Positions 44,283 to 59,074 of a DNA stretch of 64,000 bases are shown here, one piece after another. A program made the position numbers and the translations under genes. The DNA lies in NCBI GenBank assembly GCA_027452025.1, contig DAIDHI010000035.1, positions 62,001-126,000 of the forward strand, in the 5' to 3' direction. Positions within the stretch are counted from its first letter, which is position 1. Each line of letters opens with the position of its first letter. Below the pieces are notes generated by a model. That model was not told the origin of the DNA and did no database searches. It saw only the letters and a program-made list of their open reading frames with translations. This DNA comes from Elusimicrobiota bacterium (GTDB taxonomy: Bacteria > Elusimicrobiota > Elusimicrobia > UBA1565 > UBA9628).

Positions 44283-45170
44283 TTGTCATCGCTCCCGGCG
44301 GCTCGGGCGCAAGCGAACTGGGACCCCACGACGAGCGGCCCTTTTTTCACCGGCACGGCGGAAACCCAGCCTCCCGGCTCGTTTTTTGCCGAGACCTACG
44401 TCTATGACTACTACCAATCGAACCCGGGGATCCATTCTGTGGTCATGCCGCTGAGATTCAACGTGGGCGTCATCGACGGACTCGATTTCAACGCTTCGGT
44501 CCCATACGATCACACTCTGGAAAAGGGGCCGAACGGCAACTGGTATCAAGGCGGGGGCGTCGGCGATACCCAGCTCTGGGTTAAAAAGGAGCTGATCAAG
44601 GCTTCCGGCAATCTTCCGACGATCTCGACGGAGCTGATCCTCACCTTGCCATCCGGCAACTACGCCCATTTGAAGCCCGATCTCTACGACGCGGACCAAA
44701 CCGGGCTCGGCACGACGGACGTGGGCGTTTCCGTGTTGGCGCGAAAGCGCCTCGAGCCGTTCGAGTTTTACGGCCAGTTGACCTACACGACGGGCTCGCA
44801 GACGACCGTGGCTCCGGGCTACAGCACTCAAAACGGGACCCTCTTTCCCCAGGGCGGGCTCATCACCCCGGGAGACACGATCTTTTACTCCGGGGCCTTC
44901 GAGCACATACTCAACGAAAAATGGAACGCCGGCTACTTGATGGAGCTCTACGGCGGCGCTTCGACGGGCCATAACCTCTTCGTGGGCCCGACCGGCAGGG
45001 CGGGCTGGAGTTTCCTTTGGGCGGCGCCGGAGCTGGAGATCGACTTTCCGCGCAACGTCTCCTGGGGCGCCGGAGTGGCGCTGCCGGTCTACCAGGAGAA
45101 TTATCTGCGGACCATCACGCCCATGTTCACGGTCACCTACACGTATTCCGGTCCGGAAGGCCACCGATAG
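44283..45170 (+). CDS. secreted outer-membrane transporter-like barrel, start uncertain
   Basis: A 295-residue protein of alternating beta segments (FNVGVIDGLDFNASVPYDHT, FYGQLTYTTGSQTT), resembling the transporter/MetA-pathway-of-phenol-type outer-membrane proteins. The TTG at 44283 leaves only the end of a signal peptide (SSLPAARAQA). The frame stays open upstream, and a CTG at 44262 would complete it (LTALAVLLSS...). No ATG or GTG is available in frame, so either a non-canonical start or a mutated start codon must be considered. Its 3' end overlaps the convergent lanthipeptide synthetase gene by 38 nt. Confidence 0.68.
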   Translation: MSSLPAARAQANWDPTTSGPFFTGTAETQPPGSFFAETYVYDYYQSNPGIHSVVMPLRFNVGVIDGLDFNASVPYDHTLEKGPNGNWYQGGGVGDTQLWVKKELIKASGNLPTISTELILTLPSGNYAHLKPDLYDADQTGLGTTDVGVSVLARKRLEPFEFYGQLTYTTGSQTTVAPGYSTQNGTLFPQGGLITPGDTIFYSGAFEHILNEKWNAGYLMELYGGASTGHNLFVGPTGRAGWSFLWAAPELEIDFPRNVSWGAGVALPVYQENYLRTITPMFTVTYTYSGPEGHR

Positions 45171-47139
45171 GAGCGCCGCCGGACGCTCCCAGCACCCAGG
45201 ACGCCCGCGGCTCGAGCGCGGCCAGAAGCGCCAGGCCGATGCCGGAAAGCCCGCCCATCAAGCCGGGCACGAAGGGCCGCTCGTAGAGGCCCTGGAAGCG
45301 AAACGCTCCCTTTGCCCGGTAGAAGGCGGCCAGGTCCCGACCGGCCTGCCGCGCTTCCCGCTTGCGGCCCAGGCGCGCCAGGACGGCGATGCGCCCGGCC
45401 TCGCCGCAGCACAGGTGATGCCGCCGCAACGGCGGCAAGGGCCTAGCCGAGGCGCCTTCGATCTCGGCCTCGGCCAGGGCCAGGCCGACGTCGCCGCAGC
45501 ACCAGCCGCCGGGCTTGGCGCGTTCGCGGGCGACGGAAAGCAGCGCGCGCGCCTCGCGCTCGCGTCCCAGCCGCCAAAGCGCGACGGCCGTCCCCGCAGG
45601 CCCGTGGCCGAAGCCCGCGCCCTCGGGGATCTTTCCCGCAAAGCTTGCGCAAAGAGCGGCCGCCTCGCGCCGGCGGCCGCGCGCCAGAAGCCACAGGCAG
45701 GCGCCCGCTTGGCCGTTGAGGACGTCCGCATCGCCCAGGCGCGGCGCGGGCACGAAGCCCGGCACGTCGTCTAAGCGGCAGGCGCGGCGAGCCAAGCGCG
45801 AGAACTCCGAACGTCCGCTCTGGAGCGAGAGCTCCTCGAGGAACACGGCCACGCCCGCGGCGCCCGAGTAGAGCGACGGGTCGCCGGGGCGGTAGGCCAT
45901 CGTGCGGCCGGGGCTGCGCAGCCGCGCGACGTCGAGCCAGACCGGCCCTCGCGGCGTCTCGACGGCCAGCTCCCCAAGCGCCTCGCCGATGGCGACGGCC
46001 CAAGACAACAGGGAGCCTCCGCGCGGCCTGAGCCGCGCCGACGCAAGCGCCAAGGCGCGCTCGCAGACGGCGGCGTCGAGCGCCGCGCCGCGCGGCGCGG
46101 CCGCCGGAGCGTAGGAAACGGGAATGTCCCGCCGTCGCAGGGCGCGGCGCTCGGCCGGCGCAAAGCCGAAGCGGTCCAGAGCGCCCTCCTGGGCCCTCTC
46201 GTCCTTCAGCAAATCCGGCGCCGTGCTCCAGAAGAGCCAGTCGGCGTAGTCCCGAGTGGACCGCGCAAGCGTCCTCGCTTTCAAGCCCGGCGGCACGGGC
46301 GGGCGCCGCGACCTCAGCCTCCGAGCGGCGCGCGAAAAGCCCCTCAGCACGGCCTTCGCGTCGAACGGCGCAGGGCGAGGCCCTTTCGGGAGGCGGTAGA
46401 CGAGGCGTCCGGCGCGAAAGGCCGGGCGCGTGATCGACGGCGGCCGCAGCGCGCCGAAAAGTCCGGAGTCGACCTCGCTGAGCGCCTCCTCGCCGGCGAA
46501 GCGCCACACGGGAAGAAGGCCGGTGGCCAGAGGCGCCCAGCGCCTCTCGCCGCCGTAGCCGAAGAGCCCCTCGAGGTCTGCCGGCACGGGACGACCGCCC
46601 TTGGAGAGCCAGTTCTCGCGGTGCAGATCCGTGGCGCCGGCCAGGGAGAGCAACGCCAGCAGGGCTCCCATGTCCTCGAGCCAGCGCTTGGTGGGCTTCG
46701 CCGGCGCCGGCGCCAAAGCCTCGTGCCAGCTCCAGCTCTTGCGGCCGAGGACCAGCGGGACCGGGAAATCCCACCCGGCCCAGGAGAGCAGCCGCGCGTA
46801 AGCGGCGTCGTGGGAGGCTGCGCGCGGCTTGTAGATCAGCCTCTTGCCCGAAGAGAAGACAAGCTCCATCACGGTGCGGCCTTTCTCGTGAGGATCGGAA
46901 AGCCCGGCGCGCAAGCGGCGCAGCCGTCCCAGCTTGCCGAAGAGCGTCTCCAGGTCCGTCCTGTCGGCGGCCAGCCGCTTCAAGCATTCGGCCCTCGCGC
47001 GGCCGGCGTCTTCTTCAATCGTCTTTTGCCAGCGCCGCAGGACGGGATAGCTGGCGGCGTCGAAAGACGCGCCGTCATAGGCGCGCGCGCGCGCCTCGAT
47101 CTCGCGCAGGCGTTTCTCTATATGAGCGTCTTGCCGCAC
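45133..47139 (-). CDS. lanM: compact LanM-type lanthipeptide synthetase (CCG zinc class)
   Basis: A 668-residue bifunctional enzyme. The dehydratase half (DUF4135) retains LIYKPR (101-106), GATDLHREN (168-176), the DLE metal site (188-190) and an R-x3-R-x-T-x2-Y element (289-298): the residues that phosphorylate and eliminate Ser/Thr. The cyclase half (from about 355) has SLYSGAAGVAVFL, DVLNGQAG, FGHGPAG and the zinc ligands in WCCG (Cys547) and LCCGE (Cys577, Cys578). Cys-Cys-Gly replaces the usual Cys-His-Gly, the hallmark of ProcM-like substrate-tolerant enzymes. It is about 300 residues shorter than normal LanM, missing the N-terminal part of the dehydratase. It should dehydrate and cyclise the precursor at 48020. 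Confidence 0.85.
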   Translation of the reverse strand: MRQDAHIEKRLREIEARARAYDGASFDAASYPVLRRWQKTIEEDAGRARAECLKRLAADRTDLETLFGKLGRLRRLRAGLSDPHEKGRTVMELVFSSGKRLIYKPRAASHDAAYARLLSWAGWDFPVPLVLGRKSWSWHEALAPAPAKPTKRWLEDMGALLALLSLAGATDLHRENWLSKGGRPVPADLEGLFGYGGERRWAPLATGLLPVWRFAGEEALSEVDSGLFGALRPPSITRPAFRAGRLVYRLPKGPRPAPFDAKAVLRGFSRAARRLRSRRPPVPPGLKARTLARSTRDYADWLFWSTAPDLLKDERAQEGALDRFGFAPAERRALRRRDIPVSYAPAAAPRGAALDAAVCERALALASARLRPRGGSLLSWAVAIGEALGELAVETPRGPVWLDVARLRSPGRTMAYRPGDPSLYSGAAGVAVFLEELSLQSGRSEFSRLARRACRLDDVPGFVPAPRLGDADVLNGQAGACLWLLARGRRREAAALCASFAGKIPEGAGFGHGPAGTAVALWRLGREREARALLSVARERAKPGGWCCGDVGLALAEAEIEGASARPLPPLRRHHLCCGEAGRIAVLARLGRKREARQAGRDLAAFYRAKGAFRFQGLYERPFVPGLMGGLSGIGLALLAALEPRASWVLGASGGAPIGGLPDRNTCR

Positions 47140-48008
47140 CGCACGACCTCGTTGATCTCATCGACGCAGCCGCGCCAGCGCCTGTCGACGAAGCGCGTCA
47201 TCGCCTCGTATTCGGCCGGGACCTTGAAGGTCGCGCCGTCCGTCTCGCGCGCCAGCGGCCCGTCGAGATGCCGGCGGATCGATTCGGCCACCAACGCCGC
47301 GGCGATCCCAAGGCCCCGCAGATCCTCCCGGACCCACGTATAGGTGTAGCGCAAAAGCCGCGGCAGCGGCCGATGGTTGACCTGCCAGGCGACCACTTCC
47401 CCTTTATAGCGCAGGCCGAGGCTGTTGCCGGGCTCAAGCCACGGCTCGCCGTGGAACGGGTAGAGATTGCACGGCAGCTTCCCGGCTCGGTAGCCGTCCT
47501 CGATCGCGGCGCGCTCACTCGACCGCAACTCGGACCAGGGGAAGAGCTCGAATGCGGCGGGCACGCGCAGACGGCGCAGCCACGGCGCCTTCAAGACCTT
47601 GCCGGAACCCACGAAGCGGCACATGAGGGCGACGCGGGAAAACCCGTCCCATCCCTCCTTCTTGAGCAAGGCCTCGGCGGCGTCGCGCATGGGGCGCCCG
47701 CGCTCGAGTGTCGCCTCCACGCGCCGGCGCCCCTCGGCGGCCAGGACTCGCGCCGCTTCCTCGAGAAGGCGCGCGGCCAAGCCGCGGCGCCGCAGATCGC
47801 GACGCGTGAGAATCGACAAGAGTTCGCAAGGCTCGGCGCGGCGCGCGAGCAGCAGGCCGGCGGGAGCCTCCGCCGCGTCCCAGGCGGCGAGCGCGAGGAA
47901 CGGGCGCTCCCGCCCGCCGGCCGAAAGCAGAGCCGGAATCAGGGCCGGAAAAGTCATCCCCTGGAAGGCATAGCCTTCCAGGGGATCGGAGAGCGCGGCG
48001 ACGCGCAT
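47118..48008 (-). CDS. tandem GNAT-fold acyltransferase
   Basis: A 296-residue protein with two GNAT domains. The first acyl-CoA/ACP-binding loop is LTRRDLRRRGLAARLLEEAA (about residues 68-87) and the second VREDLRGLGIAAALVAESIR (about 239-258). It lies between the precursor and LanM genes, 11 nt after the precursor stop and overlapping LanM by 22 nt. GNAT enzymes install acetyl or long acyl groups in lipolanthines/goadvionin and attach fatty acids to Lys/Orn in selidamides, whose precursors also have nitrile-hydratase-like leaders. Acylation of the core (Lys151, Lys178 or Lys210 or the N-terminus) or self-protection by acetylation are both possible. Confidence 0.8.
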   Translation of the reverse strand: MRVAALSDPLEGYAFQGMTFPALIPALLSAGGRERPFLALAAWDAAEAPAGLLLARRAEPCELLSILTRRDLRRRGLAARLLEEAARVLAAEGRRRVEATLERGRPMRDAAEALLKKEGWDGFSRVALMCRFVGSGKVLKAPWLRRLRVPAAFELFPWSELRSSERAAIEDGYRAGKLPCNLYPFHGEPWLEPGNSLGLRYKGEVVAWQVNHRPLPRLLRYTYTWVREDLRGLGIAAALVAESIRRHLDGPLARETDGATFKVPAEYEAMTRFVDRRWRGCVDEINEVVRCGKTLI

Positions 48009-48019
48009 GCGCGCGGGCG

Positions 48020-48652
48020 CTACTTGGACGCGGAGACGGCCATCGTGATGAAGCTGGAGAACATCGTGCCCACGCAGACGGCGGCGGCCGCTCCGCCGAC
48101 GTAGTTGGCGCCGGCTGCCTTGGCCACGCCGCCGCTGACGGTGACGATCGTGCCCTCGGTGGCCAGAGCGCTGCCGCAACCGCCGGCGCTCGGGTCGCCT
48201 TTGCCGCCGGCCACCATCTCCAGGTCGGCGTCGGAGAGCTCTCCGGACTTGGGCGGCACGTAAGGCAGGACGAAGCTCATCTGCTTGACCGAGTCCTCGT
48301 GCGCGACGATCTTGAGGCTCTTGGGCACGTTGGCCCCCGTGGCTTCCTTGATGGCCGCGGCCGGCTCCTTGAGGAGCTTCGCCTTGAACTTCGGGTCGGC
48401 CCAAGCCTTGCGGAAGACCTTGGCGACGTTGGGATCGAGCTTGTCGAGGAACGCGCCGTCGCCCTGGGGCGGCAGGACGGCATGGATCGTGGAGGGGCCG
48501 TTCTCGAAAACGCTCACCTCTACGCCCGCCGGCAGGTCCACGCCGATGGACTTGAGCGCGGCGGCCGGGTCCTTCTTGGCCAAGGCGCGGAACTTCTCAT
48601 CGTGGATGCCCTTGTCGGCGAGCTGCTGGATCTGCTGGAGATTATCGAACAT
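48020..48652 (-). CDS. RiPP precursor with duplicated nitrile-hydratase-like leader (NHLP)
   Basis: A 210-residue precursor. The leader ends in LSDADLEMVAGG (residues 139-150), a double-Gly site for the C39 peptidase encoded upstream. The NHase-alpha-like leader unit occurs twice: residues 18-62 (DEKFRALAKKDPAAALKSIG...) and 86-132 (DPKFKAKLLKEPAAAIKEAT...). The 60-residue core (151-210) has two Cys (159, 193), about a dozen Ser/Thr, three Lys (151, 178, 210) and a hydrophobic C-terminal half. A strong AAAGGAG site precedes the ATG. Two Cys allow at most two thioether rings made by LanM. Confidence 0.88.
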   Translation of the reverse strand: MFDNLQQIQQLADKGIHDEKFRALAKKDPAAALKSIGVDLPAGVEVSVFENGPSTIHAVLPPQGDGAFLDKLDPNVAKVFRKAWADPKFKAKLLKEPAAAIKEATGANVPKSLKIVAHEDSVKQMSFVLPYVPPKSGELSDADLEMVAGGKGDPSAGGCGSALATEGTIVTVSGGVAKAAGANYVGGAAAAVCVGTMFSSFITMAVSASK

Positions 48653-48689
48653 TTCGGCTCCTTTTACTCGATCTTAAAAAGAACGTCTT

Positions 48690-48717
48690 ATTTTAGCTAA
48701 CTAACTCGGACCGTCAA
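48690..48717 (-). promoter_or_regulatory. promoter of precursor-GNAT-LanM unit
   Basis: On the minus strand, TTGACG (48712-48717), 16 nt, TAAAAT (48690-48695). The -35 overlaps the stop codon of the tolC-like gene. A separate promoter lets the precursor be made in excess over the exporter. Confidence 0.65.
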
Positions 48718-50261
48718 GGCCCGGCTTTCGCCGCGCCGTAGTCGTTCTCGATATCGCCCAGAGCCAGGCGGTAGGCCGTCTCGGCCCGGAAGAGGTCGGC
48801 CCGGGCCGTGGCTTGATTGACCCGCGCCTGGGTCGTCTGGTACTCGACTTGCAGGAGGCGGAAGGAGTCCGACAACCCGAGCTGCAGGCGCTTCTGCTCC
48901 CCGGCCAACTGCCGCTGCGAGAGGTCCACGGCCTGATCGGCTTCGGCCAGGCGCGTGAAGCCGAAGCGCACGGCGCGATCGGCGGCGCGCACGTCCTGGC
49001 GCACGACGTTCTCGGCGGCGATGACCTGGAGGCGTCTGTTTTCCAAGGCGGCCAAAGCCGAGCGGTAGCGCCCGCGGTCGGCGCGCAAGAGCAGCGGGAA
49101 ATTCGTCTTGAAGCCGAAGGACCACTGCTTGTCGGCGAAATCAAGCGCGCGGTTGAGGGAGTTCCAGCGCGCCGAGTCCAGGTTCTGCTGATAGCTGCCC
49201 ACGCCGCCGAAGCTGCCGGTGGCGTCGAGCTCCGGCAGAGCGGCGCGCTTGGCCGCGTCGGCCTGCGCCTGGGCCTGCTCTTCCGAGGCGCGCGCGGCGA
49301 GCAGATCGGGCCGCTGCGACAGCGCCTGCTCCTCGGCCTTGGGAAGCGCCGCGAGCGCCCCCGAGGGCAGGGCTTCGGTGGTGGTGCGCACGTCGTAGCC
49401 CTCCGCGCGGAAGCGCCGGGCGACGTCCTCGCCGAAGGCGGTGAAGATCAGCTGGTCGACGGCGTCGCGGCGCGCCTGCTCGGCCCGGAGATAGGTGGTG
49501 CGGCGCTCGGCCGCGCCGGCCGCCGCGGTGAGCACGTCGAAAGGGGCGATCAACTGGCGCCGCTCGAGCTGCCGGTTGCGGGCCAGCAGAGAATCGCCGG
49601 CGTCCATCGAAAGCCGCGCCGCATCGGCCTGCGCTTCGGCCTGCTGAAGCTGCCAGTAGGCGTTTTCGGCGTCGGCCACGGCCTGCTCCAGGGCCCGGCG
49701 GGCCGTCGCGTCGGCGGCTTGCAGCGCGGCGAAGGCTTGGCGGATGGCGGCCAGCGCCGCGGCCGGACCGGCGTTGCGCAGCAGCGGCTGGCTGGCGCTG
49801 AAGAGAGCGGAGGCCGTGTGCAGCGCGGGAAATGGGATTTGCTGCTGGTCGGTGTCCCCGGCCGTAAACGAGATCTGCCCTCCGGTGAGCAGGTTCTGAG
49901 CCAGCGACGCGGAATAATCGAGCTGGCGCGTATCGTTGGGCGGCAGCGACAGGTCATTGGTGAAGGTCCGCGTGCGGTTGTAGTTTTGGCTCGCCGAAGC
50001 CTGGAAGGTCGGGTCAAAGAAGCCCTTGGCCGTCATGACCTGGCCCCGGGCGTCGGCCTGGCCCTGGCGCGACTGCAAATACCGCAGCTGCAGCGAGGCG
50101 GCCGCGGCCACGACCTGCGCCAGGCTGAGCGCGGTCTGCGGCGCGGACTCCGCCAGACTCGCCGTCGACACCATCACCTCTCCGGCATCCAGGGATGAGG
50201 CCGGGGCGGCCGGCGCGGCGGCGGCCCAAACGGCCAAGGCGGCGACGAGGGCCGCGCTCAT
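48714..50261 (-). CDS. TolC-family outer-membrane efflux protein
   Basis: A 515-residue outer-membrane factor. Signal peptide (MSAALVAALAVWAAAAPAAPA), then two copies of the TolC repeat: strands such as FSASQPLLRNAGPAAALAAI and long helices (AEEQALSQRPDLLAARASEE; VRQDVRAADRAVRFGF). It supplies the outer-membrane tunnel for the type I exporter whose adaptor and ABC subunits are encoded just upstream; ATG overlaps the ABC2 stop. Including a TolC in an NHLM locus suits a didermic host that exports the product to the medium. Confidence 0.9.
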   Translation of the reverse strand: MSAALVAALAVWAAAAPAAPASSLDAGEVMVSTASLAESAPQTALSLAQVVAAAASLQLRYLQSRQGQADARGQVMTAKGFFDPTFQASASQNYNRTRTFTNDLSLPPNDTRQLDYSASLAQNLLTGGQISFTAGDTDQQQIPFPALHTASALFSASQPLLRNAGPAAALAAIRQAFAALQAADATARRALEQAVADAENAYWQLQQAEAQADAARLSMDAGDSLLARNRQLERRQLIAPFDVLTAAAGAAERRTTYLRAEQARRDAVDQLIFTAFGEDVARRFRAEGYDVRTTTEALPSGALAALPKAEEQALSQRPDLLAARASEEQAQAQADAAKRAALPELDATGSFGGVGSYQQNLDSARWNSLNRALDFADKQWSFGFKTNFPLLLRADRGRYRSALAALENRRLQVIAAENVVRQDVRAADRAVRFGFTRLAEADQAVDLSQRQLAGEQKRLQLGLSDSFRLLQVEYQTTQARVNQATARADLFRAETAYRLALGDIENDYGAAKAGP

Positions 50262-52513
50262 GCCGTCTGCCGACAGGCAAGCTCGAAAAAGAGGCCTTTT
50301 CGGGCCATGAGCTCGTCGTAGGTGCCGGCCTCTTTGAGCGCGCCGCGGTCGATGACCAGGATTCGGTCGGCGTCGCGGATCGTGCTCAGGCGATGCGCGA
50401 TGACCAGGCGGGTGACCTTGAGCTTGGAAAGGCTCTCCGTCACGATGGCCTGGGTGCGGTTGTCCAACGCGCTGGTGGCCTCGTCGAAGAGAATGATGCG
50501 CGGCTTGCGCGCGAGAGCCCGCGCGATGATGAGCCTCTGGCGCTGGCCGCCCGAAAGCGTCGAGGCGCCTTCGCCGATGATCGTCTGCATCCCCATGGGC
50601 ATGCCGCGGATGTCGTCGGCCAAGCCAGCGGCCTCCGCGGCCGCCCAAGCCTCCTCCATGGAGAGCGGCAGGCCGCCCACGATGTTGGTGTAGACGTCTC
50701 CGGCGATGAGGCGGGCGTTCTGCAAAACGGCTCCAATCTGCCGGCGGATGGCCGTGACGTCGTGCTTGGCCAGATCCTTTCCATCGTAGTAGACGGCGCC
50801 GAGCTCGGGCTTTTCGAAACCCAGGAGCAGGCGCATGAGGCTGGACTTGCCCGAACCCGAGGGACCAACGACGGCCACGAACTGCCCCGGCTCGACATGG
50901 AAAGAGACGTCGTCGAGGACCCTCGGCCCATCGGCCCGGTAGCGGAAGGAAGCGTGCCTGACGTCGATACGCCCTTGCAGGAGCCCCGGATGCGCCTTGG
51001 AACCGTCGTCTTCGGGGACGGCCTCGAGGATGGGCCTGGCGCGCGACCAGAGCGGGCCCACGGCCGCCAGCTGCAAAGCGGTGGCGCTCAGCGACGTGCC
51101 CGCCGACAAAAACGTCGAGAACGCGGCCGAGAAGGCGATGAAATCGCCGACGGAGATCGGCGCGGCGCCCGGGTTCGAGGCTCCTGGATGCAGATTGGCG
51201 TCGACGACGTAATAAAGGACCATGGTCGAAAGGACGGGGATGAAGCCGTTGAACACGGAGGCGTAGGCGCCCAGGCGCTCGGCGGAGAACGCCGCCTGGC
51301 AGGACTCCGCGTAGCGGCGGCTCCAGACGGCGAAGGCCCGGGGCTCGGCCGCGCTCACGCGCAGCTTGGAGATGCCGTTGAGCAGCTGCAGGACCAGGCC
51401 GCCGAGCTTGCCCTCGAGCTCGGTAAGCGCGTAGCGCTTGCGCAAGGACAGCCACATCACGGCGATCTGGAACGCGGCCACGGCGGCCAGGACCAGGCAG
51501 GCCACCAGCGCCAACTGCGAATGGTAATGGAACAGCAGGAATAAATTGAAGCCGCCCTGGAGGCTGGCCACCGTCGAGGCGAGCACCGAGCCGCTGATGA
51601 GCTCCCGCATCGAGTTGACGGCGTTGGCGCGCATGGCGAGGTCGCCCACGGTGTATTCGCGAAAGAAGGGCGCCGGCAGCCGCAAGAGCCGGTCCCACAC
51701 GGCGGCCTGCACGCAGCCGCCCCACTTGCCTTCCACGCGCAGCAGCGCGATCGCCTGAGTGAACGAGAATGCGGCGCTGGCCGCGGCCGCGGCGATGAGC
51801 CCCAACGTGAAGTGCGCCAGGCCCGCCCGGTCCGCGCTCGGCACGACCACGTCGAAGATCTTGCCGGTGGCCATCGGGATGGCCATGCCGAGCAGGGCTC
51901 CGAGCACGCCTAGGGCGGCCGCCATGGCGACGTCGCGCGCCATGTCTCGCCCGAAAAACGCCAGCAGGCCCCGCAGCCCCACCTTTCCGTCCCCGAAAGG
52001 GCGATAGAGCGCGTAGGCGAAAGGGTGAAGAGCGGCCGCCGCCGCCCCATCGAGCGGCATGCGCGCGCCGGCCGCGGGCTCCAGAAGCTCGTAGCGCCCC
52101 GGCCCCAGCGGCAGGACGGCGACCGGCTCCAAGGCGTTGTCCTTGGCGTCCGGCCGGCCTCGAAAGGCGAGCAAGGCGCCGCAATCCGTCTTCCACCAGT
52201 CGCCGCGCAGCGCCACGCGGCGATGGCGCACGCGCGAGGCGGCGCAAACCGCCTCGACGCGGTGCCGCAAAGGAAGGCTTTCCGGGATGGCGGGCGGCGG
52301 CGATAACGCGATGCCCTCGGCCCTGGCCACGGCGGCGCAGGCGCGCGAGAGCGCGTCGTCGAATCCTTCCCAGCCCCGCGGATCGAAGCTCTCGGGCGTC
52401 TCGACGACGGCCGCCAAGTCCTGCAGCGCGCCGGCATACATCCGCTCGTCGAGCAGGGCGCGGCGTCCGGCGCGCTCCTCCTCGCGCGGGGCGTCGTCGA
52501 GGGCCTCAGGCAT
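50258..52513 (-). CDS. NHLM-type ABC transporter 2 (no peptidase)
   Basis: A 751-residue ABC exporter. The N-terminal 200 residues include LRGDWWKTDCGALLAF and a LEPVAVLPLGPGRYELLEP stretch, characteristic of the second transporter in nitrile-hydratase-leader microcin (NHLM) systems; no C39 peptidase motif is present. Six spans (about 220-500) are followed by an ATPase with GPSGSGKSSL, LSGGQRQRLIIARAL and IILFDEATSALD. ATG 52513 overlaps the end of the C39 transporter gene by 8 nt. It probably works with that transporter, perhaps as a heterodimer. Confidence 0.88.
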   Translation of the reverse strand: MPEALDDAPREEERAGRRALLDERMYAGALQDLAAVVETPESFDPRGWEGFDDALSRACAAVARAEGIALSPPPAIPESLPLRHRVEAVCAASRVRHRRVALRGDWWKTDCGALLAFRGRPDAKDNALEPVAVLPLGPGRYELLEPAAGARMPLDGAAAAALHPFAYALYRPFGDGKVGLRGLLAFFGRDMARDVAMAAALGVLGALLGMAIPMATGKIFDVVVPSADRAGLAHFTLGLIAAAAASAAFSFTQAIALLRVEGKWGGCVQAAVWDRLLRLPAPFFREYTVGDLAMRANAVNSMRELISGSVLASTVASLQGGFNLFLLFHYHSQLALVACLVLAAVAAFQIAVMWLSLRKRYALTELEGKLGGLVLQLLNGISKLRVSAAEPRAFAVWSRRYAESCQAAFSAERLGAYASVFNGFIPVLSTMVLYYVVDANLHPGASNPGAAPISVGDFIAFSAAFSTFLSAGTSLSATALQLAAVGPLWSRARPILEAVPEDDGSKAHPGLLQGRIDVRHASFRYRADGPRVLDDVSFHVEPGQFVAVVGPSGSGKSSLMRLLLGFEKPELGAVYYDGKDLAKHDVTAIRRQIGAVLQNARLIAGDVYTNIVGGLPLSMEEAWAAAEAAGLADDIRGMPMGMQTIIGEGASTLSGGQRQRLIIARALARKPRIILFDEATSALDNRTQAIVTESLSKLKVTRLVIAHRLSTIRDADRILVIDRGALKEAGTYDELMARKGLFFELACRQTA

Positions 52514-54683
52514 TGGCCAACCTCGCGTAGAGCCCTTCGGCGTCGCGCATGAGCTCCTCGTGGCGCCCGCGCTGGACGACATTCCCCTCGTCCAGCACCA
52601 GGATCTCGTCGGCGTCGCGGATCGTGCTCAGCCGGTGCGCGATGATCAGGCAGGAGCAGCCGCGGCGGCGGATATTCTCGCCGATGAGGCGCTCGGTGAC
52701 CGGATCGAGGGCGCTCGTCGCCTCATCGAGCACGAGCACCGAAGGGTTGGTCGCCAGCGCCCGCGCGATCTCCAGGCGCTGGCGCTGGCCGCCGCTGAGA
52801 TTTCGGCCGCCTTCCTCGAGCATTCCGTCATAGGCGCCGGGCCGAGCCGTGACGTCGTCGTGGATGCAGGCGTCCACGCAGGCGCGCACGATCTCGACGT
52901 CGGGCGTGCTCGAGTCCCAGAGCGTGAGGTTGTCCTTGAACGGCCCCTCGAACATGACGATGTCCTGGTCGACCATGGCCACCGACGAGGCAAGCGAGCG
53001 CCGCGGCACCAAGCGGCGCGGCGCGCCGTCGAGGAGTATCTCGCCTTCCCAGGGCTCGTAAAGTCCGGCCACCAGGCGCGAGATCGTGGACTTGCCGCAG
53101 CCGCTCGGCCCGACGAGAGCGACGACGGCACCGGGCGCGATGACCAAGTCGAGCTTGCTGATGAGCGCCGGCTTGCGGCGCGAATAGCCGAAGGTCACGC
53201 CTCGCAGCTCGACGCGGCCGGAAAGCTTCTTGATCGGGCCCGCGGCCGCCGCCGGCGCGCAGGCCTGCGGGTCGAGACGGTGCGCCAGCACGTCGTCGAG
53301 CCGCCCCATGTCGGCCTCGGCCCCTTGGAGTTTTTCGAGCAGCTTCATGCAGCTCTTGACCGGCTCGAGGAACGCCGCCATCAGTCCCTGGAAGGCGACG
53401 AGCATGCCGAGCGTCATGTGGCCCTGGACCACGCGCAGCCCGCCCAGGCCCAGGAGCAGGGCGTCGGCCATGCCCTGCATGACCGCCGGGACCTGCACGA
53501 GGGCCGCCGCCGTCGACTGCAGCTCCTGCTGGCAGGCCGAGAGCTTGGCCTGGTAGCCGGACCAGGTGGCGAAGAAGTCCGACTCGCTACCCGTGGCCTT
53601 GAGGCTTTCGATCGCCTGAAGCCCGCCCATCGACACGCCCATGAGCTTGCCTTCCTCGCGGCCCAGGCGCCGGCTGCCGTCGACGCGCGCCAGGCGCGCC
53701 TTCTGGCAGACCCAGGCGTTGACGACGACCACCAGGACGGCGACGAAGAACAGCGGCCGGTCAATGGCCAGCATCAGGGCGCCGTAGAAGACGATGAGCA
53801 CCAAGTCGACGGCGGACGACGTCAGCTGGCCGGCCACCAAACTCGCCACGCGCCGGTTGAGCGCGACGCGGTTGGCCACGTCGCCCGCGTAGCGCTGCGT
53901 GTAGAATTCCACCGGCAGGCGCAGCAGATGCCAGAAGAACTGCCCGGCTCCGGCCACCGAGAGCTTGGCCTGCAGCCGGACGAGCGTCTTTTGCTGCAGC
54001 CACAGCAGCGAAGCCCGCACGACCGCGGCCGCGGCCATGGCCAGCAGAAGGGGCCTGAGCCAGTCCGTCATCCCGCGGACGAGATAGTCGTCGACGAAGA
54101 CGCGCCCGAAGGTGGGGATCGCCAGGCCCGGCAGCACCAGGCCGAGCCCGGCCAGGCCGACGAACCACAGCGCGCCCTCGGAGCCGCGCGCGCGCCGCCG
54201 CAGCGCCGGCCACAGGCTCGGCCGTCGCCCGTGCCTGCGAAACTGCGGGCCGGGAGAAAAAGAGAGGGCCACGCCGGTAAAGGCCGCGTCGAACTCGCTC
54301 CAGCTCACCGTCCGCGGCCCGCAGGCGGGATCGTTCAAGTACACGATGTCGCCGCGGAAGCCTTCGACGACGACGAAGTGGTTGAAGTTCCAGAAGACGA
54401 TGACGGGCAGTTCCATGGCCCGCAGCTCGGCGGGCTCCCTGCGCCAGCCCTTCGCCTCCAAGCCGTACACGCGGGCGGCTTCCACGACGTTGCGGGCGTT
54501 GCTGCCGTCGCGCGAGACGTCGCACTGGCTCCTCAGCTCCTCGAGAGGCACCCAGCGGCCGTAATAGGCCAGGATCATGGCCAGGCAGGCGGCGCCGCAC
54601 TCGGCGGCCTCCATCTGCAGGACGGTCGGGGTTTTTTTGCGCGCGTTTCGCGCGGGAGCCGCGGCGGGAGCGGACGCGCTCAC
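52506..54683 (-). CDS. NHLM-type ABC transporter 1 with N-terminal C39 peptidase
   Basis: A 725-residue peptidase-containing ABC transporter. The C39 domain has Gln23 and Cys29 in QMEAAECGAACLAMI, His102 in NFNHFVVVEG and Asp118 in NDPACG, a full catalytic set that removes the leader after the double Gly. Six membrane spans (about 165-440) and an ATPase follow (GPSGCGKSTI, LSGGQRQRLEIARAL, VLVLDEATSALD). GTG start overlaps the adaptor stop. This is the protease/exporter for the precursor at 48020. Confidence 0.92.
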   Translation of the reverse strand: MSASAPAAAPARNARKKTPTVLQMEAAECGAACLAMILAYYGRWVPLEELRSQCDVSRDGSNARNVVEAARVYGLEAKGWRREPAELRAMELPVIVFWNFNHFVVVEGFRGDIVYLNDPACGPRTVSWSEFDAAFTGVALSFSPGPQFRRHGRRPSLWPALRRRARGSEGALWFVGLAGLGLVLPGLAIPTFGRVFVDDYLVRGMTDWLRPLLLAMAAAAVVRASLLWLQQKTLVRLQAKLSVAGAGQFFWHLLRLPVEFYTQRYAGDVANRVALNRRVASLVAGQLTSSAVDLVLIVFYGALMLAIDRPLFFVAVLVVVVNAWVCQKARLARVDGSRRLGREEGKLMGVSMGGLQAIESLKATGSESDFFATWSGYQAKLSACQQELQSTAAALVQVPAVMQGMADALLLGLGGLRVVQGHMTLGMLVAFQGLMAAFLEPVKSCMKLLEKLQGAEADMGRLDDVLAHRLDPQACAPAAAAGPIKKLSGRVELRGVTFGYSRRKPALISKLDLVIAPGAVVALVGPSGCGKSTISRLVAGLYEPWEGEILLDGAPRRLVPRRSLASSVAMVDQDIVMFEGPFKDNLTLWDSSTPDVEIVRACVDACIHDDVTARPGAYDGMLEEGGRNLSGGQRQRLEIARALATNPSVLVLDEATSALDPVTERLIGENIRRRGCSCLIIAHRLSTIRDADEILVLDEGNVVQRGRHEELMRDAEGLYARLANA

Positions 54684-55747
54684 AGGCCGAGGTAGGACTT
54701 GAGCGCCGGCAGCGCGAGCTCGATGGGCCGACGGCGGTCCACGATCACTCTCGCCTCTCCCATCATCCCCGCGGCGACGGGGATCTCCGGCCCCTCGGAG
54801 GCCGACCACTTGAATCCGCTCGGGCTGTTCGGGTCGCGTTCGAGGGCGATCTTGACGAGGAAGGGCGGGCCGTCCTTGGTGAGCTGATCGTCGAGGGACT
54901 GGCTGCGGGTGAGCTCGTAGAGCATATTTGCGCGCACGGGCAGCTCGGAGCCGAACGCCACCTTGCCCTTGATGAAGCCGTATTCCTGCTTCGGAAACGA
55001 CGCCGGCGAGACCTGAGCGTCCATGCCCACCTTGGCTTGGTCGCCGACGTTGGGGATGAACGCCAAGGCCATCAGAGGCTCGTCGTCGTCCATGATCGTG
55101 AGCACCGGCGCGCCCGTGCGGATCATCGTCGAAGGCGAGGTGACAACCTCGACGACGCGCCCGGCCTTGAGCGCCCGCACCTCCGTGGCGTGCTTCTGCT
55201 GCACCGTGCCGACGGCGAGCTGCGTCTGGACGGACTCCAGATCGGCCTTGGCCGTGTTGACGGCGTCGGCCGCGGATGCCGCGTCGGCGGCGGGGATCAG
55301 GCCCATGGCCGCCGCCTCTTTCTTGGCCTTGGCCTGCTTTTCCAGGAAGGGGATCTTCTGCCTCAGGCCGGCGAGCCTGGTCTCCAGCTCTTGGCGCGAG
55401 CCGCGGCTCTTGACCGCCTGGGACTCCTCGAAGACGTGGGCCACGACCTCGCCCGGCTTGACGTGATCGCCCTCCTTGACCAGGATGTCGCTGACGAAGC
55501 CATCCCCGGTGGAGTAGACCTCGTCGACGCCCTCCGGCGGCATCAGGATCATCTTGCCCGAGATCGTCGTAGGGATGCGCCCGAGGATGGACCACAGCAG
55601 CACGCCCGCGAGCACCGCGACGATGGCGAGCAAGGCGACCCAGGTCTTGGGCGTCGTCACCTGGACGAGGGTATCCAATTGCTCGGGCGTCGAAAGGCGC
55701 TCGAGGGCCGACTTGCGGAAGATCTGCGCGCCGGGCAACGGAGCCAT
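54680..55747 (-). CDS. HlyD-like membrane fusion protein of NHLM secretion
   Basis: A 355-residue periplasmic adaptor. Cytoplasmic N-terminus with SALERLSTPEQLDTLVQVTTP, a segment typical of NHLM-system secretion proteins, then one span (about 37-56). A lipoyl/coiled-coil region follows (VSDILVKEGDHVKPGEVVA; helices about 115-190), then a beta-barrel domain. It bridges the ABC pair and TolC. First gene of the export operon; its ATG lies 7 nt after TAAAAT (55755-55760). Confidence 0.9.
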   Translation of the reverse strand: MAPLPGAQIFRKSALERLSTPEQLDTLVQVTTPKTWVALLAIVAVLAGVLLWSILGRIPTTISGKMILMPPEGVDEVYSTGDGFVSDILVKEGDHVKPGEVVAHVFEESQAVKSRGSRQELETRLAGLRQKIPFLEKQAKAKKEAAAMGLIPAADAASAADAVNTAKADLESVQTQLAVGTVQQKHATEVRALKAGRVVEVVTSPSTMIRTGAPVLTIMDDDEPLMALAFIPNVGDQAKVGMDAQVSPASFPKQEYGFIKGKVAFGSELPVRANMLYELTRSQSLDDQLTKDGPPFLVKIALERDPNSPSGFKWSASEGPEIPVAAGMMGEARVIVDRRRPIELALPALKSYLGL

Positions 55748-55754
55748 CGGACCT

Positions 55755-55797
55755 ATTTTAGCAGCTTTGACGGCGGCGTGACGGGCTTTGGTAGAAT
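55755..55797. promoter_or_regulatory. divergent promoter region between RiPP exporter and KS/ACP operons
   Basis: In the 56-bp spacer, TAAAAT on the minus strand (55755-55760) ends 7 nt before the hlyD-like ATG, and TAGAAT on the plus strand (55792-55797) ends 6 nt before the fabG-like ATG. A TTGACG (55767-55772) serves the plus side with a long 19-nt spacer. Both transcripts would be leaderless, and the promoters overlap closely enough to be co-regulated. Confidence 0.5.
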
Positions 55798-55803
55798 CTC
55801 CCA

Positions 55804-56541
55804 ATGGGCCGCTTCGAGGGCCGGACGGCGATCGTCAGCGGCGGCGGCCGCGGCATCGGGCGCGCCGTCGCCTTGCAGCTGGCGCGGGAAGGCGCGCGAG
55901 TCGTCTTCAGCTTCGCCGGCGACGAGAAGGCCGCCGCCCTGACCGAAGCCGCCGCCGGCGGGGCCGCCGTGGCCGTGCGCGCCGACGCATCGTCGCCGCA
56001 AGCGGCCCGGCTCCTGGCCGACGCCGCGCGCCGGCGCTTCGGAGGCTTCGACCTGCTCGTCAACAACGCCGGCATCGTCCGCTCCTCGATGGTGGCCTTC
56101 ATGGACGACGAGCAGTGGAGCCAGGTGCTGCGAGCCGACTTAGACGGCCTCTTTTATCTCAGCCGCTTGGCCGCGCAGACCTTCCTCAAGCAAGGCCGCG
56201 GCGCCATGGTCAACGTGGCGTCCTTGACGGCTTTCCACGGAGCCGTCGGCCAGGCCAACTACGCCGCCGCCAAGGGCGGCATGGTGGCCTTCACGCGCAC
56301 GCTCGCCCGGGAGCTGGCGCCCCGCGGCATCCGCGTCAACGCCGTGGCCCCGGGCGCCATCGAGACGGACATGCTCCGGGCCGTTGCGGCGCCGCGGCGC
56401 GAAGCCCTGATCAATGCCGCCCCCATGGGCCGGGCGGGCACGCCGGAGGAAGTGTCCTCCGTCGTCTGCTTCCTTTTGTCCGACGCCGCCTCCTTCGTCA
56501 CCGGGCAGACCCTGATCGTCGACGGCGGAACCTCGGCGTGA
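55804..56541 (+). CDS. FabG-type 3-oxoacyl-ACP reductase
   Basis: A 245-residue short-chain dehydrogenase. NADP-binding TAIVSGGGRGIGRAVA (N-terminal), NNAG at about 87, catalytic Ser in VNVASLTAFHG and YAAAKGG (Tyr-x3-Lys). FabG-like EALINAAPMGRAGTPEEVSS and TGQTLIVDGGT near the end. It heads an operon with KS-beta, ACP and KS-alpha, so it should reduce the 3-oxoacyl-ACP made by them. No other fatty-acid genes adjoin, so this looks like a dedicated set rather than the cell's main FAS. Confidence 0.88.
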   Translation: MGRFEGRTAIVSGGGRGIGRAVALQLAREGARVVFSFAGDEKAAALTEAAAGGAAVAVRADASSPQAARLLADAARRRFGGFDLLVNNAGIVRSSMVAFMDDEQWSQVLRADLDGLFYLSRLAAQTFLKQGRGAMVNVASLTAFHGAVGQANYAAAKGGMVAFTRTLARELAPRGIRVNAVAPGAIETDMLRAVAAPRREALINAAPMGRAGTPEEVSSVVCFLLSDAASFVTGQTLIVDGGTSA

Positions 56542-57518
56542 GGCGGGTCGTCGTCACCGGAATCGGCATCGTCTCGCCCATCGGCCACGGCCGGGAAGCG
56601 TTCTGTTCGGCCCTGGCGCGGGGCCAAAGCGGCATCCGCGACATCACCCTCTTTGCGACCGACGGCCTGCGCGCGCGACGCGCCGGCGAGATCTCGGATT
56701 TTCAGCCTGAGGCGTTCCTCGGACCCAAGGGCCTTCGGCTGCTCGACCGCGCCGCCAAGCTCGCGCTCTGCGCGGCCCACTTGGCGCTGGAAGACAGCGG
56801 CCTCCTTTATAAAGAAGACGCCGGCGCGGAAATCGGCGTTTGCCTGGGCTCGACGGCCGGAAGCGTGCAGTCCCGCGCCGCCTACTTCGCCACGCTGCAC
56901 CGCGAGGGCGTGCGCGGGCTCAACCCCGCCCTCTTTCCCAACACCGTCGTCAACTCGCCCTCCGCGCAAGTGGCGATCCGTTTCGGCCTGAAGGGCTACA
57001 ACGCCACGATCTCGTCGGGCGCGGCGTCCTCCTTGCACGCGCTGGACTACGCGGCTCGCTCCATCGCCACGGGCCGCGCGCCCGCGGCGCTCGCCGGCGG
57101 AGTCGAGGAGTTGGGCGAGTTCTTCTTCATGGCGTTCCACCAGGGCGGCTGCCTCGACGACGGCCTCGTCCTCGGCGAAGGAGCGGCCGTGCTCGCGCTC
57201 GAGGAGGCCGGGGCGGCGCGCGCGCGCGGCGCGCGGATCCTGGCCGAATACGCCGGCGGCGGCTCGTCGCTCGCGCTGCCCGAGGCGGTCGCGCTCGCGC
57301 TCGAGGAGGCGGGAGCGGCGGGCGCGCCGCCCCCCAGGACCTTCTCGGCCGACGCCGTGCGACCGTTCATCGGCGAGTGCTATTCGGCGGGAGGCGCGTT
57401 CCAGGCCTGCGCGGCGATCCAAGCCTTGGAGCGCGAGCCGCGCGCGCTGGTGTCGTCGGCCGGCCCCACGGGCGAGGCGGCGGCGTGCGTATTTTCGAGA
57501 TGGGAGAAAAACACATGA
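56538..57518 (+). CDS. ketosynthase-like protein lacking the catalytic triad (KS-beta/chain-length-factor-like)
   Basis: A 326-residue thiolase-fold protein. It starts RRVVVTGIGIVSPIG like FabF. The nucleophile elbow reads TISSGAASSLHALDYA with Ala162 where Cys should be. The C-terminal PFIGECYSAGGAFQ has GEC where active enzymes have GHxxGA, and no HGTGT motif is present. It is also about 80 residues shorter than FabF. This is the pattern of chain-length factors in type II polyketide and aryl-polyene systems, which pair with an active KS: here the enzyme at 57768. GTG start overlaps the fabG stop. Confidence 0.82.
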   Translation: MRRVVVTGIGIVSPIGHGREAFCSALARGQSGIRDITLFATDGLRARRAGEISDFQPEAFLGPKGLRLLDRAAKLALCAAHLALEDSGLLYKEDAGAEIGVCLGSTAGSVQSRAAYFATLHREGVRGLNPALFPNTVVNSPSAQVAIRFGLKGYNATISSGAASSLHALDYAARSIATGRAPAALAGGVEELGEFFFMAFHQGGCLDDGLVLGEGAAVLALEEAGAARARGARILAEYAGGGSSLALPEAVALALEEAGAAGAPPPRTFSADAVRPFIGECYSAGGAFQACAAIQALEREPRALVSSAGPTGEAAACVFSRWEKNT

Positions 57519-57775
57519 AGCAAGATCAAGCGGCCGTCGAGGCCGCCGTCCGGACGATGGTCGCCACGATCCTCGAGAAGCCCGAAGACAAGATCGGCCC
57601 CCAGGCGGACTTCGTAGACCAACTGGGGGCGGACTCCATGGCCGCGCTCGAGCTCATGGCGGAGATCGAGAAGCGCTACGGCATCGTCGTGCCCCCGGAG
57701 AACCTGCCGCGGTTCAAGTCCGTGGCGTCGGTCAGCCGCCTCGTCATGGAACTCCTGGAAGCCGAAGTTGCCTGA
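57515..57775 (+). CDS. acyl carrier protein
   Basis: An 86-residue ACP. The attachment site is LGADSMAALEL with Ser41; the usual DSL is DSM. The sequence IEKRYGIVVPPENLPRFKSV is the typical helix III region. ATG overlaps the KS-beta stop, and the gene overlaps the next KS by 8 nt. An upstream in-frame ATG at 57500 is possible. It carries the growing acyl chain for the flanking ketosynthases and could hand it to the GNAT enzyme encoded at 47118. Confidence 0.92.
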   Translation: MKQDQAAVEAAVRTMVATILEKPEDKIGPQADFVDQLGADSMAALELMAEIEKRYGIVVPPENLPRFKSVASVSRLVMELLEAEVA

Positions 57776-58964
57776 GGCACGCGTCGTCGTCACCGGCATC
57801 GGCGTCGTTTCCGCCGTCGGGATAGGCAAGGAAGCCTTCTGGCGCGGATTGCTCGCCGGGAAAAGCGGCGTCTCGCCGATCACGGCCTTCGACCCCGCGG
57901 CCTGCCCCGTCCCGATCGCGGCGGAAGCGCAGGATTTCCGGCCCGAAGAGCACCTCGAGCCCGAGCAGGTCCGGGCGTTCGGACGCTCCTCGCAGCTGGC
58001 GACGGCCGCCGCCAAGCTCGCCTTGACCGACGGCGGAGAGCCCTCCGGACGCTGCGGGGTCTACATCGGCACGACGATGGGAGAGGCGCGCATGCAAGAC
58101 GAGGCCTGCGGCGCCTGGGTCTCGGGCGGCCGCATGGCGATCTCCGGAGACCTGGCGCGCCGCGGCGCCGACAACGTCCTGGCCGTCAACGCGGCGCGCG
58201 CCCTGCGCCTCGACGCCGAGTGCCTCTGCCTGCCCACGGCCTGCGCGGCCGGAAACTACGCCCTGGGCCACGCCTTGGACCAGATCCGGCGCGGTCGCGT
58301 GCGCTGGGCCCTGGCCGGAGGCGCCGACGCGTTTTCCCGCGTAGCCCAGGCGGGATTCTCGCGCATGCTGGCCCTGACGCCGGATCGCTGCCGGCCCTTC
58401 GACCGCGACCGCAAGGGGATCGTCGTCGGCGAGGGCGCGGCCGTGATGGTCCTGGAGCCGCTCGACGCCGCGCGCCTGCGCGGCGCGCGCGTCTACGCCG
58501 AGCTCAAGGGCTACGGCCAGAGCTGCGACGCCAGCCACATGACGATCCCCCATCCCGACGGCGCCGAGGCCGTCATGCGCCGCGCGCTCGCTCACGCGGG
58601 CGCCTCCGCCGCCGACGTCGACTACGTCTGCGCCCACGGCACCGGGACGCGGCAAAACGACCTCAGCGAGTGCGAGGCCGTCGCGCGCGTCTTCGGTGCT
58701 CGCGCCCGCGCGGTGCCCGTCAGCTCCATTAAGTCCATGCTCGGCCACGCCATGGGCGCGGCCAGCGCGCTTGAGGCCGCGGCCTGCGCCCTGGCCGTGG
58801 CCGAAGGGACGATTCCCCCGACCATCAACTACGAGACGCCGGACCCCGGCTGCCCGATCGACTGCGTCCCAAACGCCGCCCGCCGCGTCCGGGTCCGCCT
58901 GGCGCTCAACAACGCCTTCGCCTTCGGCGGCAACAACTGCGCGACGGTCTTTTCCAAGGTTTAA
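57768..58964 (+). CDS. beta-ketoacyl-ACP synthase (KAS II-type, active KS-alpha)
   Basis: A 398-residue condensing enzyme with the full triad: Cys159 in LPTACAAGNYAL, His290 in CAHGTGT, and Lys322/His327 in SSIKSMLGHAMGAA. The C-terminal NNAFAFGGNNCATVF is the FabF signature. The TTG start overlaps the ACP gene by 8 nt. It elongates malonyl units, presumably as a heterodimer with the inactive KS-beta. The operon ends here, just before a tRNA gene. Confidence 0.9.
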   Translation: MPEARVVVTGIGVVSAVGIGKEAFWRGLLAGKSGVSPITAFDPAACPVPIAAEAQDFRPEEHLEPEQVRAFGRSSQLATAAAKLALTDGGEPSGRCGVYIGTTMGEARMQDEACGAWVSGGRMAISGDLARRGADNVLAVNAARALRLDAECLCLPTACAAGNYALGHALDQIRRGRVRWALAGGADAFSRVAQAGFSRMLALTPDRCRPFDRDRKGIVVGEGAAVMVLEPLDAARLRGARVYAELKGYGQSCDASHMTIPHPDGAEAVMRRALAHAGASAADVDYVCAHGTGTRQNDLSECEAVARVFGARARAVPVSSIKSMLGHAMGAASALEAAACALAVAEGTIPPTINYETPDPGCPIDCVPNAARRVRVRLALNNAFAFGGNNCATVFSKV

Positions 58965-59000: not shown

Positions 59001-59074
59001 GCCCCCGTAGCTCAGTTGGTCAGAGCAGCCCGCTCATAACGGGTTGGTCGCTGGTTCAAGTCCAGCCGGGGGCA
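59001..59074 (+). tRNA. tRNA with CAT anticodon (Ile2 or elongator Met)
   Basis: Complete cloverleaf. Acceptor GCCCCCG pairs with CGGGGGC (7 bp), D arm GCTC/GAGC, anticodon stem GCCCG/CGGGT around loop CTCATAA, and T arm GCTGG-TTCAAGT-CCAGC. Discriminator A; CCA is not encoded. The G1-C72 pair excludes initiator tRNA. The variable and T-arm sequence TTGGTCGCTGGTTCAAGTCC closely resembles tRNA-Ile2 (lysidine-modified CAT) of other bacteria, so Ile2 is favoured over elongator Met. Confidence 0.93.

What the first reader, a model, noticed from the sequence alone, without database searches (positions are those of the whole stretch)
45133..58964. Candidate lipidated lanthipeptide system: NHLP precursor, tandem GNAT, CCG-LanM and a divergent KS/ACP operon
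Seen: an NHLP-leader precursor, a tandem-GNAT gene and a LanM gene sit in one unit, with an NHLM export operon (HlyD, C39-ABC, ABC2, TolC) upstream. A fabG/KS-beta/ACP/KS-alpha operon diverges from the exporter through a 56-bp spacer with overlapping promoters. Known: GNAT enzymes attach polyketide or fatty acyl chains in goadvionin/lipolanthines and fatty acids to Lys/Orn in selidamides with NHLP-type leaders. Inference: the dedicated ACP supplies an acyl chain that the GNAT loads on the lanthipeptide core. Combining CCG-LanM, GNAT and a minimal type II KS pair is, to my knowledge, not a described class.
Basis: partly seen in the sequence, partly recalled or inferred. Interest (0 to 1): 0.93.

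Follow-up and report, generated by a model that had tools for sequence, protein, structure and literature searches.

The report
Acylated lanthipeptide cluster beside ketosynthase operon
An uncultured, likely Elusimicrobiota, bacterium carries genes for a leader-bearing peptide, a shortened lanthionine synthetase, a two-domain enzyme of the GNAT acyltransferase fold and a peptide exporter, together predicted to make and secrete a fatty-acid-tagged peptide of the known selidamide kind; 56 bases from the exporter begins a four-gene ketosynthase/carrier-protein operon that may build the tag, a pairing that would be new for this peptide class.

Summary
Minus strand: an NHLP precursor (two leader repeats; core starts with Lys), a tandem GNAT, a CCG-type LanM and an NHLM exporter. 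Plus strand, 56 bp away: fabG/CLF/ACP/ketosynthase. GNAT + LanM + NHLP/Nif11 leader is not a new class: it is the selidamide architecture (phaeornamide, nostolysamides). A same-family genome (G004) holds two Arg-first NHLP precursors, a GNAT, a pfam12640 (peptide arginase family) protein, LanM and NHLM exporter, which fits a GNAT acting on core residue 1: Lys here, Orn there. New features are a 668-aa LanM lacking roughly 120-170 N-terminal residues, and the neighbouring operon. The operon's KS pair belongs to a widespread ladderane-like type II family; none of 80 sampled KS loci showed LanM, GNAT, NHLP or HlyD. Two other LanM+NHLM loci found in 340 phylum genomes lack the operon, and so, judged by listed contig length only, does the 177-kb contig with the closest LanM. 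Acyl supply by the operon is therefore plausible (compact divergent locus; ketoreductase but no dehydratase beside it, hence a 3-hydroxyacyl prediction) but unproven, and the operon is not a conserved part of such clusters.

The parts
48020..48652 (-). precursor gene, 210 aa: Os17-type leader repeat (residues 6-40), NHLP leader (77-150), LEMVAGG, then a 60-residue core that begins with Lys and holds 2 Cys and 12 Ser/Thr
   Evidence: TIGR03793 102 bits, NF038399 43.8 bits; core parsed
48023..48202 (-). predicted core peptide coding part (Lys1 to the last residue)
   Evidence: sequence after Gly-Gly; cleavage site inferred
47118..48008 (-). tandem GNAT, predicted acyltransferase acting on Lys1
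   Evidence: PF00583; model pLDDT 88 and tandem GNAT matches; P-loop motif in both halves
45133..47139 (-). short class II lanthionine synthetase (LanM), 668 aa, CCG type
   Evidence: DUF4135 and LANC_like; motifs kept; model matches LicM2 and CylM; LCCG motif
48714..50261 (-). TolC-like outer membrane efflux protein
   Evidence: OEP 4.3e-38
50258..52582 (-). NHLM exporter ABC2
   Evidence: TIGR03797 876 bits, over cut-off
52506..54674 (-). NHLM exporter ABC1 with C39 peptidase (start codon not settled)
   Evidence: TIGR03796 1045 bits, PF03412 1.1e-35
54680..55747 (-). NHLM HlyD-like secretion protein (start chosen at the ATG)
   Evidence: TIGR03794 238 bits; start
55748..55803 (.). 56-bp divergent spacer with a -10-like box on each strand
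   Evidence: no sigma-70 pair
55804..56541 (+). FabG-like ketoreductase (SDR)
   Evidence: PF13561 1.7e-64; FabG models match below their cut-offs
56538..57518 (+). KS-beta / chain-length-factor-like subunit, compact, Ser for the active Cys
   Evidence: PF00109
57515..57775 (+). acyl carrier protein
   Evidence: PF00550 2.1e-15
57768..58964 (+). KS-alpha ketosynthase with Cys-His-His intact
   Evidence: PF00109, PF02801; alignments

Best explanation
The locus encodes an NHLP-leader precursor, a tandem GNAT, a short CCG-type LanM and an NHLM exporter, which together likely make a selidamide-type lanthipeptide whose core Lys1 would be fatty-acylated, with the adjacent KS/CLF/ACP/ketoreductase operon the predicted but least certain source of the acyl chain. 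Predicted order: LanM, guided by the leader, dehydrates Ser/Thr and closes up to two (methyl)lanthionine rings with the two core Cys; the GNAT transfers an acyl group to the side chain of Lys1; the C39 peptidase of ABC1 cuts after Gly-Gly; HlyD, the ABC proteins and TolC export the product. The operon has a ketoreductase but no dehydratase or enoyl reductase gene in it, so if it feeds the GNAT the chain would be a 3-hydroxyacyl group on the dedicated ACP. Shown: genes, domains, catalytic motifs, gene overlaps, spacer. Inferred: every reaction. Judged separately: selidamide-type acylation about 0.8; supply by this operon, given that, about 0.5.
For: NHLP precursor, GNAT, LanM and full NHLM exporter in one stretch. 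Core begins with Lys and the window shows no match to the G004 arginase, whereas G004 has two Arg-first cores with a pfam12640 protein, GNAT, LanM and exporter; pfam12640 peptide arginases make the ornithines of kamptornamide and phaeornamide (PMC10028609 passages), and nostolysamide is acylated on Lys1 (PMC13060382, abstract). GNAT model is a tandem GNAT, as NpuN is. LanM keeps its catalytic motifs in an alignment of 24. GNAT and LanM homologues list shared contig lengths for 3 of 3 close short-LanM relatives. Operon supply: 56-bp divergent spacer with two -10-like boxes, overlapping genes, intact KS-alpha, CLF and ACP; no FabA/FabZ-like match in the 64 kb outside 14.4 kb; phaeornamide carries a 3-hydroxydecanoyl group.
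Against: No reaction was tested. The wider GNAT family includes TIGR03032 fusions in non-RiPP settings, and the G004 GNAT is only 29% identical and is missed by tblastn at E 1e-3. One of five G221 cores starts with Arg although no arginase or GNAT was found there (weak test). Operon supply: G004 and G221 loci lack it; no KS-beta hit among the 120 listed of 645 bears the 177,528-bp contig length of the closest LanM/GNAT; 0 of 80 KS loci show LanM, GNAT, NHLP or HlyD; described selidamides use fatty acids of primary metabolism (PMC9505594 passages).
Confidence: 0.45

Rival explanations
1. The RiPP half is an ordinary selidamide cluster whose GNAT takes acyl groups from primary metabolism, and the KS/CLF/ACP/FabG operon is an unrelated neighbour, a reduced relative of the ladderane-like type II clusters.
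For: Described selidamides use primary-metabolism fatty acids (PMC9505594 passages) and NpuN accepts acyl-CoAs (PMC13060382 passages). G004 and G221 have LanM + NHLM without the operon. KS relatives stand without RiPP genes in 80 of 80 loci sampled. The 177-kb contig with the closest LanM shows no KS-beta among listed hits.
Against: The operon abuts the exporter through a 56-bp divergent spacer, has lost the dehydratase and oxidoreductase genes common in its relatives, and no other client gene was recognised beside it. G004 and G221 are distant (GNAT 29%, none found).
Confidence: 0.4
2. The GNAT adds a small group such as acetyl, to the peptide or as self-protection, and the product is not a lipopeptide.
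For: The GNAT profile also matches RimI and aminoglycoside acetyltransferases weakly; NpuN accepts acetyl-CoA as well.
Against: Tandem architecture and placement between precursor and LanM match RiPP acyltransferases; a GNAT gene also sits beside the precursors in G004.
Confidence: 0.1
3. The short LanM is inactive, so the product is a modified but ring-free peptide.
For: It is about 310-325 aa shorter than LicM2 and CylM and scores below the TIGR03897 cut-off.
Against: Motifs of both halves are kept, three relatives are similarly short (656, 780, 620 aa), and the model is confident (pLDDT 86) and matches LicM2 and CylM.
Confidence: 0.05

Closest known systems
Nostolysamides (Nostoc punctiforme; NpuA, NpuM, NpuN)
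   Same: three-Cys (CCG) LanM, tandem GNAT, Gly-Gly leader, core starting with the Lys that is acylated (PMC13060382)
   Different: Nif11 leader there, NHLP here; normal-size LanM assumed there, 668 aa here; no ketosynthase operon mentioned in the parts I read
Phaeornamide (Pseudophaeobacter; PhaA, PhaM, PhaN, PhaR, PhaI, PhaT1-3)
   Same: NHLP precursor, LanM, GNAT, dual transporter; 3-hydroxydecanoyl lipid (PMC9505594 passages)
   Different: there an arginase and a hydroxylase prepare the acceptor ornithine; here the core starts with Lys and no arginase match was found; acyl from primary metabolism there
Lipolanthines (microvionin) and goadvionins
   Same: RiPP lanthipeptides joined to a chain made by a dedicated synthase (polyketide hybrids; passages)
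   Different: class III synthetases and N-terminal lipid; here class II LanM and a type II KS/CLF/ACP set
[quoted passage not shown]
   Same: pairs of FabF-like KSs, one lacking the active-site Cys and His (Kuste3348; PMC2649909 passages); KS-alpha relatives in Brocadiaceae, Scalindua, Omnitrophota, Nitrospirota
   Different: no radical SAM, oxidoreductase or dehydratase gene in the four-gene operon; KS-alpha 44-52% identical

Membership tests
Selidamides | GNAT encoded with a RiPP precursor | tested here: met
   adjacent genes 47118-48008 and 48020-48652
Selidamides | Lys or Arg/Orn acceptor in the core | tested here: met
   core starts with Lys; that it is the acceptor is inferred
Selidamides | fatty acyl group attached to a Lys or (hydroxy)Orn side chain | not testable with these tools
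   needs mass spectrometry
Selidamides | GNAT groups phylogenetically with PhaN, NpuN and the kamptornamide GNAT | not tested
Class II lanthipeptides | LanM with DUF4135 dehydratase and LanC-like cyclase parts | tested here: met
   TIGR03897 below its cut-off because of shortness
Class II lanthipeptides | dehydratase and Zn-site motifs | tested here: met
   D82/H84, K104, D171/H173/N176, D188, R293, C547, C577 invariant or nearly so in 24 sequences; functional roles recalled from CylM
Lipolanthines/goadvionins | class III (LanKC) synthetase | tested here: not met
   LanKC model 36.9 bits against cut-off 575; LanM model 206.9 bits
Ladderane-like KS/CLF clusters | KS-alpha with CLF-like partner, ACP and KR | tested here: met
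Ladderane-like KS/CLF clusters | dehydratase and FAD oxidoreductase genes beside the KS pair | tested here: not met
   FabA-like in 52 and FAD oxidoreductase in 58 of 80 relatives' loci, neither beside the window operon

The most novel reading that the evidence does not exclude
A RiPP lipopeptide cluster that recruited its own minimal type II synthase from the ladderane-like KS/CLF family: a dedicated ACP, ketosynthase pair and ketoreductase build a fixed 3-hydroxyacyl chain that the tandem GNAT puts on Lys1 of a class II lanthipeptide, instead of drawing on primary metabolism.
Probability: 0.38. Interest if true: 0.78.

Novelty: new variant of a known kind. Interest (0 to 1): 0.5.

Why it matters
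Described selidamides take their fatty acid from primary metabolism. If a cluster encodes the chain builder as well, chain identity becomes genetically programmed, joining type II fatty-acid/polyketide synthesis to class II lanthipeptides. The short LanM offers a compact natural class II synthetase, and the architecture is extended to a likely Elusimicrobiota lineage, where G004 gives a second, arginase-containing example. Even without the operon link, the contrast of Lys1 without arginase here and Arg1 with arginase in G004 is a direct test of how the acylated residue is chosen.

Tried and rejected
Rejected: that GNAT + CCG-LanM + NHLP/Nif11 leader is an undescribed class. Rejected: that the compact CLF is an assembly error, since P0038 shares its deletions. 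Not taken as decisive: absence of KS-beta from metagenome contigs with GNAT/LanM. Contigs were matched by listed length only, not read; only the 177-kb contig is long enough to be informative, and only 120 of 645 KS-beta hits were listed. Considered: recent foreign origin of the operon; its G+C is like its surroundings.

Led nowhere or not followed: the G004 GNAT found no plasmid match. The precursor found NHLP genes on five plasmids; I opened two, and no LanM is among the annotated genes of the stretches shown. G218 was read only as an ORF list; the fetched G014 and G002 loci and the weak DUF4135 match in G043 were not followed. tblastn with the window GNAT at E 1e-3 misses even the G004 GNAT, so absence of a GNAT in the G221 locus is a weak statement. 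No metagenome contigs or viral-contig scan was made. PDB entry 9s5h could not be tied to a paper. Papers with both 'selidamide' and 'ketosynthase': 1, a review that I did not open; a broader search gave 23, of which 10 were listed and none opened. The paper library lacks most subscription journals, so 'new for this class' rests on these searches and on recall.

Full report
WHAT IS THERE. Minus strand: HlyD, C39-ABC1, ABC2 and TolC (55747 down to 48714), then after a 61-bp gap the precursor (48020-48652), GNAT (47118-48008) and LanM (45133-47139). Plus strand: fabG, KS-beta, ACP, KS-alpha (55804-58964), then a tRNA at 59001-59074. Family assignments are; HlyD, ABC1 and ABC2 exceed their NHLM cut-offs. 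The two divergent start codons lie 56 bp apart, each preceded at 6-7 bp by a -10-like hexamer. TA[AG]AAT occurs 12 times in the window on both strands together; 3 of these precede an ATG by 5-8 bp and 2 of the 3 are the pair in this spacer. The consensus scan finds no sigma-70 pair, so leaderless transcription from both sides is an inference.

HOST. The window is part of a 3.2-Mb draft genome of 105 contigs, 93.9% complete. Homologues of the GNAT (P0005, 60%) and of KS-beta (P0039, 54%) carry the name Elusimicrobiota; the phylum is therefore likely, not certified.

PRECURSOR. 210 aa with an Os17-type leader repeat at residues 6-40 and the NHLP leader at 77-150. After LEMVAGG the core has 60 residues, begins with Lys and holds 2 Cys and 12 Ser/Thr, so at most two lanthionine rings.

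RELATIVES IN THE PHYLUM. Of 340 phylum genomes, the window's own included: GNAT at E <= 1e-8 in 1, DUF4135 in 4 (G000, G004, G221, and weakly G043), NHLM ABC2 over its cut-off in 3 (G000, G004, G221). G004 (same family) has two NHLP precursors whose cores start RCAGSC and RCGASC, a GNAT (29% to ours by BLASTP), a pfam12640 protein, a full-size CCG LanM and HlyD/ABC1/ABC2/TolC. pfam12640 is the peptide arginase family that makes ornithine (PMC10028609 passages). G221 has the exporter, at least five NHLP precursors and a full-size LanM; in the 32 kb fetched, tblastn finds no match to either GNAT or to the G004 arginase (a weak test, since the same search misses the G004 GNAT with our GNAT as query). 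Of its 5 cores parsed the first residues are Q, F, F, A and R; the R without an arginase found is a result against a strict rule. Neither the G004 nor the G221 locus gives a tblastn match to KS-alpha, KS-beta, ACP or FabG at E 1e-3. Genome-wide, G004's one KS-beta match lies on another contig, as does G221's at E <= 1e-30.

KS OPERON. KS-alpha keeps Cys, His, His; KS-beta has Ser for Cys and lacks the His segments. Homologue P0038 (69%) has the same deletions; P0039-P0043 (51-54%) keep a longer form that still lacks the Cys. Both subunits match the two KS chains of PDB 9s5h best (386 and 175 bits). KS-beta matches at E <= 1e-30 occur in 62 of 340 phylum genomes, but the best outside the window's own is 45% identical (G325). 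The 80 best KS-alpha relatives kept, from Omnitrophota, Nitrospirota, Brocadiaceae, Scalindua, Planctomycetota, Acidobacteria and others, are 44-52% identical. By tblastn at E 1e-4 they show two or more KS in 74 of 80, a FabA/FabZ-like gene in 52, an FAD oxidoreductase in 58, FabG in 39, ACP in 36, a thioester-reductase-like gene in 16, and LanM, GNAT, NHLP or HlyD in 0 (loci are 3-21.6 kb long, so these are lower bounds; general ABC matches, ABC2 in 4 and ABC1 in 3, were not counted as NHLM). The query genes were family-tested (FabA-like, NAD_binding_4, Amino_oxidase). Anammox ladderane clusters likewise include FabF paralogues with substituted active sites, phytoene-desaturase-like and radical SAM enzymes (PMC2649909 passages; PMC9821293 passages). 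The window operon keeps only KR, CLF, ACP and KS; a chain would end at the 3-hydroxy stage unless a dehydratase from elsewhere acts. One FabZ-like match does lie in the window, at 14.4 kb.

IS THE OPERON PART OF IT? For: position, overlapping genes, shared spacer, no other client recognised beside it, and rarity of close relatives of both GNAT and KS-beta in the phylum sample. Against: absence from the G004 and G221 loci, and no KS-beta hit with the 177,528-bp contig length among the 120 listed of 645. Of the seven best KS-beta hits (51-69%, coverage 79-99%), 0 share a contig length with a GNAT or LanM hit; five of their contigs are under 12 kb and the genes lie 8.5 kb apart here, so this is weak. 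Further KS-beta hits of 51-54% identity but lower coverage (62-75%) are also in the list and do not share those lengths either. I put supply by the operon at about even odds, given acylation.

COMPARISON. It works like a selidamide system: nostolysamide (Lys1, three-Cys LanM, tandem GNAT) for the acceptor, phaeornamide for precursor type, exporter and possibly the 3-hydroxy lipid. Membership: gene-level features are met; the defining lipid cannot be tested here, and the GNAT could not be placed on a tree with reference enzymes. What differs is the short LanM, the double leader and the neighbouring synthase. Dedicated synthases beside lanthipeptide genes are known for class III (lipolanthines, goadvionins), so the new element would be their use with class II/selidamide chemistry.

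VERDICT. Observation right; class claim wrong; acyl-supply idea open and testable. Interest 0.5.

Noticed in passing
L108:900-13500 (G004:C14): A same-family genome carries a phaeornamide-like set: two Arg-first NHLP precursors, GNAT, pfam12640 protein, full-size CCG LanM and NHLM exporter.
   Followed up: yes
L139:7977-19900 and L147:1-5072 (G221:C12): An NHLM exporter, at least five NHLP precursors with different cores and one full-size CCG LanM: one synthetase that may serve many substrates.
   Followed up: partly
window 55748-55803: Two divergent -10-like boxes 6-7 bp before their ATG codons suggest leaderless transcripts on both sides; a TATAAT box 6 bp before an ATG at 37287 may be another case.
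   Followed up: partly
L135:7855-14934 and L138:6789-11127 (cyanobacterial plasmids): A related tandem GNAT is fused to TIGR03032 and lies next to Ig-like or cadherin-like proteins, perhaps acyltransferases for surface proteins.
   Followed up: no
L151:5500-7500 (G000:C18): The same genome has a second ketosynthase pair with an ACP-like match on another contig.
   Followed up: no
L153:1-12498 (Nostoc sp. C057 plasmid): An NHLP precursor that aligns with residues 1-150 of the window precursor, so the double leader is not unique; it lies beside SagB/TOMM-type and NHLM genes.
   Followed up: no
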